In this document: positions 59,208 to 61,722 of the stretch, piece after piece
How the letters are laid out: every line of letters starts with the position of its first letter
Numbering within the stretch: position 1 is the first letter of the stretch
Assembly: GCA_902761605.1 (NCBI GenBank)
Contig: CACWLC010000018.1
Span: 1 to 64,000, forward strand
DNA from: an uncultured Prevotellaceae bacterium
Lineage (GTDB): Bacteria; Bacteroidota; Bacteroidia; Bacteroidales; Bacteroidaceae
Direction of reading: 5' to 3'
Length of the DNA: 64,000 nucleotides
Program-made: the position numbers and the translations under genes
The notes under the pieces: generated by a model
Seen by the model: only the letters and a program-made list of their open reading frames with translations
Told to the model about the DNA's origin: nothing
Databases searched by the model: none

Positions 59208-60218
59208 ATGGATCTATTAAGTCAAATTGTAGCGCGTGCAAAAAGTAACAAGCAGCGCATCGTGCTCCCAGAAGCAGAAGAGGAGCGTACACTCTGTGCA
59301 GCCGATAAGGCTCTTGGTGATGATATCGCAGACATCATCCTGATAGGTAACCCTGCTAAGGTTGAGGCTCTCGCTAAGGAAAAGGGACTCACCAACATTG
59401 GTAAGGCAACACTCATCGACCCTGAGAACTATGAGAAGAGCGAGGAGCTTGCTGAGAAACTGGCCGAAATCCGCAAGTCTAAAGGTATGACCATCGAGGA
59501 GGCTCGCAAACTGGTTAAGAATCCTCTGTATCTTGGATGTATGATCATCAAGACCGAGGGTGCCGATGGTCAGATCTCTGGTGCTCTATCAACAACAGGT
59601 GACACTCTGCGTCCTGCTCTGCAGATCATCAAGTGTGCTCCTGGCATCACATGTGTAAGTGGCGGTCTGCTGCTCATCTCTAAGGAGAAGCAGTATGGTG
59701 AGGATGGTGTTCTCGTTGTTGGCGACGTTGCCGTTACTCCAATGCCTGATGCTGCTCAGCTCTCTCAGATTGCTGTATGTACAGCTCAGACAGCTAAGTC
59801 GGTTGCTGGTTTCGCTGAGCCGCGTGTCGCTATGCTGAGCTTCTCAACAAAGGGTTCTGCAAAGCACGAGGTATGCGACAAGGTTATTGAGGCTACTCGT
59901 CTGGCCAAGGAGATGGCTCCTGAGCTGAAGATCGACGGTGAGCTCCAGGCTGATGCTGCTCTTGTTCCAAGTGTTGGCGCCAAGAAGGCTCCTGGTTCTG
60001 ATATCGCTGGTAAGGCTAACGTATTGGTATTCCCTAACCTCGAGGTTGGAAACATCGGTTATAAGATGGTTCAGCGCCTTGGTGATGCTATCGCCATCGG
60101 CCCAATCCTCCAGGGTATCGCCCGTCCAGTAAACGACCTCTCTCGTGGCTGCTCTGTCGATGACATCTACTACATGATTGCCATCACCTCATGCCAGGCC
60201 ATGGACGCTAAAAAGTAA
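59208..60218 (+). CDS. pta: Phosphate acetyltransferase
   Basis: A 336-residue Pta of the short type (no N-terminal regulatory domain). It converts acetyl-CoA and phosphate to acetyl phosphate. Motifs: RIVLPEAEEERTLCAADKA, LIGNPAKV, KNPLYLGCMIIKTEGADGQISGALSTT, FSTKGSAKHE, DGELQADAALVP and NVLVFPNLEVGNIGYKMVQRLG. Together with ackA it makes ATP and acetate, the main fermentation route. Between pta and ackA sits a 255-base inverted-repeat element, so the usual tight pta-ackA spacing is broken and ackA has its own promoter. Confidence 0.97.
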   Translation: MDLLSQIVARAKSNKQRIVLPEAEEERTLCAADKALGDDIADIILIGNPAKVEALAKEKGLTNIGKATLIDPENYEKSEELAEKLAEIRKSKGMTIEEARKLVKNPLYLGCMIIKTEGADGQISGALSTTGDTLRPALQIIKCAPGITCVSGGLLLISKEKQYGEDGVLVVGDVAVTPMPDAAQLSQIAVCTAQTAKSVAGFAEPRVAMLSFSTKGSAKHEVCDKVIEATRLAKEMAPELKIDGELQADAALVPSVGAKKAPGSDIAGKANVLVFPNLEVGNIGYKMVQRLGDAIAIGPILQGIARPVNDLSRGCSVDDIYYMIAITSCQAMDAKK

Positions 60219-60237
60219 TAAAAAGAAATTTAAAAGT

Positions 60238-60492
60238 AAAGAAATTGGAATAATAAGAATAATATGACGCGCCAAGAGTATGTTGACATCTATGACTTTG
60301 TGGGTGCTGCCCAGGAAGTTCACAAGGTGCTTGGAAGAGGGATGAACGAGGCTGTTTATCAGGAGGCTCTTGCGATAGAACTCAAAACTAGGGGAATGTC
60401 TTTTGAGCGCGAGAAACATCTGCAGTTGCAGGAGAACTACAAGGACTATATAGACGAAGTCTAATAATTATTCTTATTATTCTAATTTCTTT
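60238..60492. mobile_element. 255-base inverted-repeat element carrying a short GxxExxY ORF
   Basis: The left end (60238-60263) and right end (60467-60492) are inverted copies of 26 bases with one mismatch. They enclose exactly one ORF: its ATG is the next base after the left end and its stop ends two bases before the right end. There is no transposase and no clear target duplication, so it would be a non-autonomous, MITE-like element or a self-contained toxin-like or RNA cassette. Name and mobility are inferred from the structure. Confidence 0.6.
60264..60464 (+). CDS. Truncated GxxExxY-family protein
   Basis: A 66-residue protein beginning MTRQEYVDIYDFVGAAQEV with the family signature GMNEAVY (G-x-x-E-x-x-Y) and the strand FEREKHLQLQENYKDY. 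The GxxExxY family (PD-(D/E)xK nuclease-like, normally about 125 residues) continues with an acidic strand and a VIVELKA-type motif; here the chain ends at YIDEV, before that catalytic half. It fills the space between the inverted repeats of the element at 60238-60492. Either a remnant or a deliberately short form; whether it is expressed is unknown. Confidence 0.68.
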   Translation: MTRQEYVDIYDFVGAAQEVHKVLGRGMNEAVYQEALAIELKTRGMSFEREKHLQLQENYKDYIDEV

Positions 60493-60496
60493 CTTA

Positions 60497-60504
60497 TATA
60501 TTTG
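60497..60504 (+). promoter_or_regulatory. -7 box (TATATTTG) for ackA at the element edge
   Basis: TATATTTG starts 5 bases after the right inverted repeat; the -33 region therefore lies within that repeat. ATG at 60529. Confidence 0.65.
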
Positions 60505-60528
60505 GTCATTTTTTTTAATTAATTTAAT

Positions 60529-61722
60529 ATGAAGATTTTAGTTCTTAACTGTGGCAGCAGTTCTATTAAATATGCATTGTATAACATGGATGACAAGTCC
60601 GTGATGACCAGTGGTGGTGCTGAGCGCGTAGGCTTGGACGGAGCTTTTGTAAAGGTTAAGCTGGCCAATGGCGAGAAGAAGCAGATTATGCACGATATCC
60701 CTGAGCATACTGAGGGCGTGAAGTTTATCTTTTCTCTGCTCACTGACCCGGAGATCGGTGTAATCAAGAGTCTCGATGAGATTAACGCAGTAGGTCATCG
60801 TATGGTGCATGGCGGTGAGAAGTTCAATAAGTCTGTGATCCTTACTGACGAGGTCCTGAAGGCTTTCGAGGAATGCTCTGACCTTGCTCCTCTGCACAAC
60901 CCAGCCAACCTTAAGGGCGTTAACGCCGTTAAGGAGCTGATGCCTGGTCTGCCCCAGGTAGGCGTATTCGACACAGCCTTCCATCAGACCATGCCTCCAA
61001 AGGCTTATATGTATGCTATTCCTTATGAGCTTTACGAGAAGTATGGCATCCGTCGCTATGGCTTCCACGGTACATCTCACCGTTATGTCTCAGCTCGTGC
61101 TTGTGAGTTCTTAGGTATCCCTGCAGAGGGCACAAAGATGGTAACTTGTCACGTTGGTAATGGTGGGTCTATTGCTGCTGTCGTTGACGGTAAGTGTATC
61201 GACACCTCAATGGGTCTCACTCCTCTCGAGGGTCTTGTGATGGGTACTCGTGCCGGTGATATCGATGGTGGTGCAGTTACTTTCATTGAGAAGAAGCTCG
61301 GCCTTGATGCTGACGGTATGTCTAACCTGCTCAATAAGAAGAGTGGTGTTGCCGGCCTCACTGGCGGTTCTTCAGACATGCGTGACGTAGAGAACGCAGC
61401 CAAGGCTGGTGATCCAAAGGCTAAACTGGCTCAGGACATGTATTTCTATCGCATTAAGAAGTACATCGGTGCCTATGCAGCTGCTATGGGTGGTCTCGAT
61501 GTTGTGGTCTTCACTGCTGGCGTAGGCGAGAACCAGATATCTATGCGTTCTGAGGTATGTAAGGATATGGAGTTCCTCGGCATCAAGTTCGATGAGTCGA
61601 AGAACAATGTCCGTGGCGAGGAGGCTGTCATCTCTGCCGACGATTCAAAGGTAAAGGTCGTTGTCATCCCAACCGATGAGGAGCTTATGATTGCTACAGA
61701 TACAATGAACCTGCTGAAATAA
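60529..61722 (+). CDS. ackA: Acetate kinase
   Basis: A 397-residue acetate kinase (ASKHA fold): acetyl phosphate plus ADP gives acetate plus ATP. Motifs: VLNCGSSSIKYALY (phosphate 1), VGHRMVHGGEKF, PLHNPANLKGV, FDTAFHQTMPPKAYMYAIPY, RYGFHGTSHRYV, CHVGNGGSIAAV, DTSMGLTPLEGLVMGTRAGD and FTAGVGENQI. Full family length. It completes the Pta-AckA pathway with the gene at 59208 despite the element between them. A clear terminator follows. Confidence 0.97.
   Translation: MKILVLNCGSSSIKYALYNMDDKSVMTSGGAERVGLDGAFVKVKLANGEKKQIMHDIPEHTEGVKFIFSLLTDPEIGVIKSLDEINAVGHRMVHGGEKFNKSVILTDEVLKAFEECSDLAPLHNPANLKGVNAVKELMPGLPQVGVFDTAFHQTMPPKAYMYAIPYELYEKYGIRRYGFHGTSHRYVSARACEFLGIPAEGTKMVTCHVGNGGSIAAVVDGKCIDTSMGLTPLEGLVMGTRAGDIDGGAVTFIEKKLGLDADGMSNLLNKKSGVAGLTGGSSDMRDVENAAKAGDPKAKLAQDMYFYRIKKYIGAYAAAMGGLDVVVFTAGVGENQISMRSEVCKDMEFLGIKFDESKNNVRGEEAVISADDSKVKVVVIPTDEELMIATDTMNLLK

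What the first reader, a model, noticed from the sequence alone, without database searches (positions are those of the whole stretch)
60238..60492. A 255-base inverted-repeat element wrapped exactly around a 66-codon GxxExxY ORF between pta and ackA
Seen: 26-base ends (60238-60263 and 60467-60492) are inverted copies with one mismatch; the ORF's ATG begins directly after the left end and its TAA ends two bases before the right end. Known: the GxxExxY family is nuclease-like, about 125 residues, and multi-copy in some genomes. Inference: a non-autonomous mobile unit, or a nuclease-fold micro-cassette, has lodged in a core acetate operon and now supplies the -33 region of the ackA promoter. Ends that fit the ORF this precisely are unusual.
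Basis: partly seen in the sequence, partly recalled or inferred. Interest (0 to 1): 0.8.

Follow-up and report, generated by a model that had tools for sequence, protein, structure and literature searches.

The report
Deleted copy of tiny nuclease element
The short gene between pta and ackA is a broken copy of a very small repeat-bounded DNA element built around a nuclease-like gene, and related elements with their own matching scattered repeats turn up in many bacteria, which suggests an undescribed kind of minimal mobile DNA.

Summary
In detail: 26-nt arms (25/26) enclose a 66-codon ORF. The ORF is an in-frame internal deletion of a GxxExxY gene (PF13366/TIGR04256, PD-(D/E)XK); full-length copies (143-146 aa) sit in the same pta-ackA gap in at least five congeneric species, and the window copy lacks the catalytic half.

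Beyond the window: 91 of 120 full-length GxxExxY genes lie between inverted arms, against 5 of 103 neighbouring genes; in a multi-phylum set 51 of 78 against 22 of 310. Arms repeat a short word about every 9 nt. Four end types searched in whole genomes recur away from a gene, often as inverted doublets: 15 arms in this genome, 14 in G027, 9 and 12 in G018 and G032, 84 in Bacteroides fragilis; reversed patterns gave 0 in those genomes. At one Bacteroides site the arm-to-arm unit is present in 8 of 13 genomes (gene degraded in one) and reduced or absent in 5.

It works like REPIN/RAYT with an unrelated enzyme and non-palindromic ends. Binding, cutting and movement are inferred.

The parts
60238..60263 (+). 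left arm AAAGAAATTGGAATAATAAGAATAAT, with two GAATAAT words 9 nt apart
60264..60464 (+). 66-codon ORF, internally deleted GxxExxY (PDDEXK_3) gene: N-terminal about 56 residues joined in frame to the last about 10 residues
60426..60440 (+). approximate deletion junction (66 codons left of the 144 of L158: 78 codons, 234 nt missing)
   Evidence: comparison with L158, L203, L129, L125; exact base not determined
60467..60492 (-). right arm, inverted copy of the left arm
59208..60218 (+). pta, left neighbour (context only)
60529..61722 (+). ackA, right neighbour (context only)

Best explanation
The window holds a dead, non-autonomous member of a family of minimal inverted-repeat elements. An intact member is one GxxExxY gene (roughly 115-150 codons, PD-(D/E)XK fold) between two inverted arms; each arm is a short row (two to four, by eye) of related words about 9 nt apart. 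Most likely mechanism (inferred): the GxxExxY protein recognises its own word array, cuts at or near the arms, and repair or re-insertion copies arm-to-arm DNA to new intergenic sites or over existing ones. Units that keep only two arms and a loop (about 65-95 nt) are moved in trans and form the dispersed doublets. Shown by comparison: arms around the gene, dispersed cognate arms and doublets, presence or absence of the arm-to-arm unit at a fixed site, concerted change of words in both arms, co-variation of words with protein. Inferred: binding, cutting, movement. In this genome the only gene copy found has lost its catalytic half by an in-frame deletion, leaving both arms and 13 further arm copies.
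For: Full-length relatives in the same gap (G065, G023, G006, G090, G125) and the in-frame internal deletion. Intact genes of the same subfamily at other sites in G023 (L125) and G032 (L122) carry the window's own 23-nt arm pattern with 0-1 mismatch. Arms around 91 of 120 GxxExxY genes vs 5 of 103 neighbours, 3 of 77 random windows, 181 of 4000 mismatched flanks; 51 of 78 vs 22 of 310 in the multi-phylum set. A 5-mer repeats 7-13 nt on in 67 of 83 left arms vs 19 of 72 stretches outside. Dispersed arms: 15 in G000 (2 in the window); 14 in G027 (2 at its gene) and none in the 59 other genomes searched; 9 in G018 (2 at its gene) and 12 in G032 (6 at its gene), whose genes carry CGGACT ends; 84 in B. 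fragilis (2 at its gene), 50 of them in 25 facing doublets, 14 at exactly 61 nt. Loops are shared between doublets at different sites (by eye). One Bacteroides site: unit in 8 of 13, one decayed arm in 2, empty in 3; the element protein tree disagrees with the tree of the flanking genes. Arm similarity tracks protein identity at sites without flank homology, r 0.32 vs largest of 300 permutations 0.10. D69, E78 invariant in 20 of 20, K80 in at least 90%. AlphaFold pLDDT 95.5; the only PDB matches at E up to 0.001 are three chains of SSO0001 (TM 0.46-0.48; a Cas4-type PD-(D/E)XK nuclease by recall).
Against: 29 of 120 and 27 of 78 GxxExxY genes have no arm pair at the threshold. Copies of the GAATAAT arm are abundant in G025 (8), G028 (16) and G034 (16), where none of the GxxExxY genes found has exactly these ends; G011 has 3 CGGACT arms with one mismatch and no GxxExxY hit. 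Many genes sit at orthologous sites in several species, so movement of the gene is rare. Outer flanks also correlate with protein identity, more weakly but above their own permutations (r 0.17, largest 0.14), so part of the arm signal may be shared composition or descent. No target-site duplication was seen. No cleavage or movement was measured. Whether another enzyme moves the doublets was not excluded genome-wide.
Confidence: 0.72

Rival explanations
1. The arms and doublets are ordinary REPINs of a RAYT (Y1 HUH) transposase, or MITEs of some IS, and GxxExxY genes were only captured between two such repeats.
For: Dispersed doublets look like REPINs; a repeat of the AGGGGACAGG type (RAYT-type by recall) does occur in the pta-ackA gap of G032 (L175). 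Some genomes have many arms without a cognate intact gene.
Against: Four arms tested have no internal fold, unlike REPs, and I see no GTAG tag. Capture would have to recur in many lineages with end types that track the protein. Not excluded: no genome was searched for RAYT or IS genes.
Confidence: 0.13
2. The arms are kept as an RNA hairpin (as in 23S rRNA intervening sequences): the transcript folds, is processed, and protects the operon mRNA.
For: The window transcript folds better than all 200 shuffles (z -6.1); S23/IVP genes occur in the same gap in two relatives.
Against: Arm mismatches show no excess of those that keep G-U pairs on the sense strand: 114 against 118 opposite transitions. 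Direct word repeats inside each arm are not needed for a hairpin.
Confidence: 0.07
3. The element is a stable domesticated gene with arms acting as its own operator, not mobile now.
For: Orthologous positions across species; ends lie close to start and stop codons.
Against: A downstream arm, dispersed doublets that share loops, and flank-tree conflict at one site.
Confidence: 0.06
4. Chance or a purely local hairpin.
For: AT-rich intergenic DNA.
Against: None in shuffles; 15 copies vs 0 reversed in the genome.
Confidence: 0.01

Closest known systems
REPIN / RAYT (TnpA_REP) systems
   Same: Short inverted doublets with a loop dispersed in the genome; the same ends next to a gene; several distinct end types, each with its gene; gene often inherited in place (PMC3116915 passages; here).
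   Different: Enzyme is a PD-(D/E)XK protein, not a Y1 HUH transposase. Each arm is a row of direct words, not a GTAG-tagged palindrome. The gene itself lies inside an arm-to-arm unit that is present or absent at a site.
23S rRNA intervening sequences with S23/IVP ORF (PF05635)
   Same: A small ORF inside terminal inverted repeats (428 nt in Coxiella, PMC4990558 passages); IVP genes occur in the same pta-ackA gap in two relatives.
   Different: Different protein; here in gaps between protein genes, not in rRNA; no sign of an RNA-level constraint on the arms.
MITEs and their parent insertion sequences
   Same: Internal deletion derivatives that keep both ends; dispersed short copies.
   Different: Enclosed protein is not a DDE or HUH transposase; no target-site duplication seen; end words differ from gene to gene.
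PD-(D/E)XK homing endonucleases (for example I-Ssp6803I, recalled)
   Same: A single small nuclease of this superfamily spreading its own gene is the idea proposed here.
   Different: Not inside an intron; bounded by inverted word arrays.

Membership tests
GxxExxY / PDDEXK_3 (TIGR04256, PF13366) | Profile match above curated cut-off | tested here: met
   Window ORF 48.7 bits vs 35 and 48.4 vs 22, N-terminal half only; relatives L125 and L158 match 5-110 and 5-109 of 117
GxxExxY / PDDEXK_3 (TIGR04256, PF13366) | Catalytic D...ExK core | tested here: not met
   Present in full-length relatives, deleted from the window ORF
REPIN/RAYT | Inverted doublets dispersed in the genome | tested here: met
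   25 doublets in B. fragilis; also G000, G018, G027, G034
REPIN/RAYT | Each repeat is a palindrome preceded by a conserved tetranucleotide, mostly GTAG (passages of PMC8266576) | tested here: not met
   No internal fold in the four arms tested; no GTAG tag by eye. Many arms begin ACCAC or ACCGC, but the GAATAAT and CGGACT types do not
REPIN/RAYT | Associated Y1 HUH tyrosine transposase | tested here: not met
   The enclosed protein is PDDEXK_3; absence of RAYTs elsewhere in these genomes was not tested
IS / MITE | Target-site duplication on insertion | tested here: inconclusive
   Empty Bacteroides gaps could not be aligned to the base
IS / MITE | Terminal inverted repeats shared by intact and deleted copies | tested here: met
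   L125 and L122, intact genes of the same subfamily, carry the window's arm pattern with 0-1 mismatch; a frameshifted G033 copy keeps long arms
23S rRNA IVS | Location in rRNA and S23 protein | tested here: not met
   pta-ackA gap, different protein
Any mobile element | Demonstrated movement | not testable with these tools
   Comparative evidence only

The most novel reading that the evidence does not exclude
GxxExxY elements are an undescribed class of mobile DNA: about 450-600 bp, among the smallest gene-bearing elements, spread by a single PD-(D/E)XK nuclease that reads a word array at each end, with a trailing population of non-autonomous doublets. They would account for many of the ACCACAGAGACACAGAG- and ACCACAGATTACACAGATT-like intergenic repeats of Bacteroidota, Verrucomicrobia, Planctomycetes and others, and the protein and its word change together, giving a natural series of nuclease specificities.
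Probability: 0.5. Interest if true: 0.92.

Novelty: categorically new. Interest (0 to 1): 0.85.

Why it matters
GxxExxY proteins occur in many genera and several phyla and I know of no assigned role. Tying them to matching inverted ends and to dispersed doublets gives them a testable function and gives a class of unexplained intergenic repeats an owner. If a lone PD-(D/E)XK nuclease can spread such units, it is an independent invention of a REPIN-like system, with a different enzyme and a different end grammar. The joint change of protein and end words offers a natural experiment on how DNA-cutting specificity evolves. The window copy shows how an element dies: the catalytic core goes, the ends stay.

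Tried and rejected
Considered and rejected: chance hairpin; RNA-level hairpin constraint (no G-U bias); nuclease cassette still active in the window (catalytic core deleted); -33 promoter supply (no support; the scan covers sigma-70 type only, 3 sites against a mean of 1.6 in shuffles); Rfam RNA over 59900-60900 (none at gathering score); anti-phage defence gene (PADLOC: weak Cas4, Cas4b and PDC-M36A hits); phage family (PHROGs: one weak hit of unknown function for one of three proteins); solved relative by sequence (one chance-level hit).

Led nowhere: exact target-site duplication (gaps not alignable); an empty site for the window element itself (congeneric gaps vary); B. fragilis against G158 over 19.5 kb gave no empty site, but one in-place change of doublet type, one inverted doublet and one diverged doublet among the sites compared. 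The first flank test did not orient minus-strand loci; redid it (63 of 79), one search is the final one. The tree is the quick one; the careful search did not finish.

Literature, all in the PMC open library. I saw nothing on GxxExxY with repeats; subscription papers and preprints were not searched. Seen: passages of PMC8934634, PMC12085832, PMC4990558, PMC8266576; abstract, outline and passages of PMC3116915; the others only in search listings.

Full report
Check. The arms, ORF and coordinates are as described. The arm pattern occurs nowhere else in the window and not in 100 shuffles. In the whole assembly (2.73 Mb, about 85% complete) it occurs 15 times with up to one mismatch, against 0 for the reversed pattern; a shorter 16-nt pattern gave 13 against 3. 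Three pairs outside the window face each other at short distance (C6, C16, C51); C6 and C16 share the loop as well, in opposite orientation.

What the ORF is. It matches the first half of TIGR04256 and PF13366 and is the only member found in its genome. In five species of the same genus a full-length gene lies just upstream of ackA: G065, G023, G006, G090, G125. This comes from comparing the coordinates (ackA found in 109 of 120 genomes; whose list was cut, so five is a lower bound). The proteins have 143-146 aa, begin with variants of MTRQEY and end with variants of ENYKxYI. The window ORF has the same beginning (about 56 residues) and the same end (ENYKDYIDEV), with 78 codons fewer than L158, in frame. 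Lost are D69, E78, Q92 and Y96 (invariant in 20 of 20 relatives) and K80 (at least 90%; numbering of L125). In L158 the arms lie 1 nt from ATG and 1 nt from the stop, so the neat fit is inherited. The tree puts the window ORF with L158 and L203; gap genes fall in three places of one subfamily that also lives at other sites (quick tree, few columns). Two of those other-site genes, L125 in G023 and L122 in G032, carry the window's own arm pattern.

Arms are a family trait. From fetched loci I took 124 GxxExxY genes covering at least 80 profile positions, 122 unique, 120 with at least 150 nt on both sides. The best inverted match between 250-nt flanks scored 26 or more in 91 of 120; neighbouring ORFs 5 of 103, random windows 3 of 77, flanks of different genes paired 181 of 4000. 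These genes are not independent, since many share a site. A separate set of 80 loci (the best 80 of 573 found in a capped scan; 54 labelled MAG), of which 77 loci with 78 genes were usable, gave 51 of 78 against 22 of 310 neighbours. Those with arms include Bacteroidota, Ignavibacteria, Verrucomicrobia, Planctomycetes, Lentisphaerae, Anaerolineae, Spirochaetes and a contig binned as archaeal. Among elements scoring 30 or more, a 5-mer recurs 7-13 nt on inside the left arm in 67 of 83 and 31 of 40 (outside: 19 of 72 and 10 of 37; shuffled arms 28% and 19%), mostly at 9 nt, or 9-10 in the second set.

Arms are dispersed. CGGAAA type: 14 copies, all in G027 (2 at its gene), none in 59 other genomes; the reversed control gave 2 in G055. 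CGGACT type: 9 in G018 (2 at its gene) and 12 in G032 (6 at its gene), and 7 with one mismatch in G007, G011 and G033. GAATAAT type: 15 in G000, but also 16 in G028, 16 in G034, 9 in G032, 8 in G025 and 1-2 in five others, of 60 genomes. In G028, G034 and G025 none of the GxxExxY genes found has exactly these ends, which counts against a strict pairing. Bacteroides fragilis Q1F2: 84 copies within three mismatches, 0 reversed; 25 facing doublets, 14 with spacing 61, and 34 unpaired arms, two of which bound the GxxExxY gene in a 445-nt unit with perfect 33-nt arms. Doublets at different sites share loops (by eye).

Units come and go. At the B. fragilis gene's site I compared 13 genomes: B. fragilis and 12 taken from the best matches. 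The flanking genes are conserved in all. Eight carry an arm-to-arm unit with the gene, 454-505 nt between the conserved flanks; the gene is degraded in G162; G153 and G203 are near-copies, as are B. fragilis and G158. Five have 54-83 nt instead. Of these, two keep one decayed arm (G175, 0 of 400 shuffles as good; G191, 2 of 400) and three show none above shuffles (65, 239 and 138 of 400). Word type follows the protein clade (AGATT in four, AGAGG in four), but the tree of the flanking genes mixes them (FastTree). This suggests replacement or re-insertion at the same place. In G158 against B. fragilis one doublet site holds a different word type between the same flanks.

Arms change in concert. 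At four orthologous sites in the window's genus 20 of 21 elements have matching left and right arms, while the words differ between species at three of the sites (at the fourth they are alike). Over 83 elements, arm similarity rises with protein identity for pairs without flank homology (r 0.32; largest of 300 permutations 0.10); outer flanks do so less (r 0.17; largest 0.14). Arm mismatches show no bias to G-U compatible changes (114 vs 118), which argues for recognition as DNA.

Mechanism. The fold model (pLDDT 95.5) has SSO0001 as its only PDB match at E up to 0.001 (TM 0.46-0.48; Cas4 by recall), with lambda-type exonucleases weaker and mixed with unrelated folds. I infer that the protein binds the word array, cuts, and that repair or re-insertion copies arm-to-arm DNA, including doublets in trans. 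Binding, cutting and movement are not shown.

Comparison. REPIN/RAYT is the nearest working model (PMC3116915 passages), but its enzyme and its tagged palindromic repeat are not met. I rate the system categorically new in enzyme and ends, while its population behaviour is REPIN-like; a reader who weighs behaviour more would call it a new variant of that kind. The window copy itself is a dead derivative.

Noticed in passing
L163 1143-1427 and L178 1009-1407 (pta-ackA gap of G080 and G028): Four-helix-bundle S23/IVP genes (PF05635) sit in the same gap, by eye also inside inverted arms; the L163 copy is short (94 aa). Possibly a second small-gene-in-arms family using the same place.
   Followed up: partly
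30 pta-ackA gaps, L151-L180: Of the 30 best loci the gap holds GxxExxY in 3 (the window included), IVP in 2, various palindromic repeats in 7 and short spacers (22-76 nt) in 18: a place of frequent small insertions in a core operon.
   Followed up: partly
L205/L190 (G110 C68): Two identical GxxExxY copies in tandem, 495 nt apart.
   Followed up: no
L148 (G028 C9 31000-39500): A 1251-aa ORF has GAATAAT-type arms on both sides in mirror orientation (four + before it, four - after it), as if a cargo gene lay between arm arrays.
   Followed up: no
L145 (G032 C87 68000-70000): Three near-identical stretches 161-162 nt apart that combine a GAATAAT arm with a CCTGTCC repeat.
   Followed up: no
L142 (G033 C208): A GxxExxY gene split by a frame change keeps long arms (score 77): the gene decays before its ends.
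   Followed up: partly
L343 9261-9330 vs L357 10593-10662: One doublet is inverted, with some flank, between B. fragilis and the 99%-similar genome G158.
   Followed up: no
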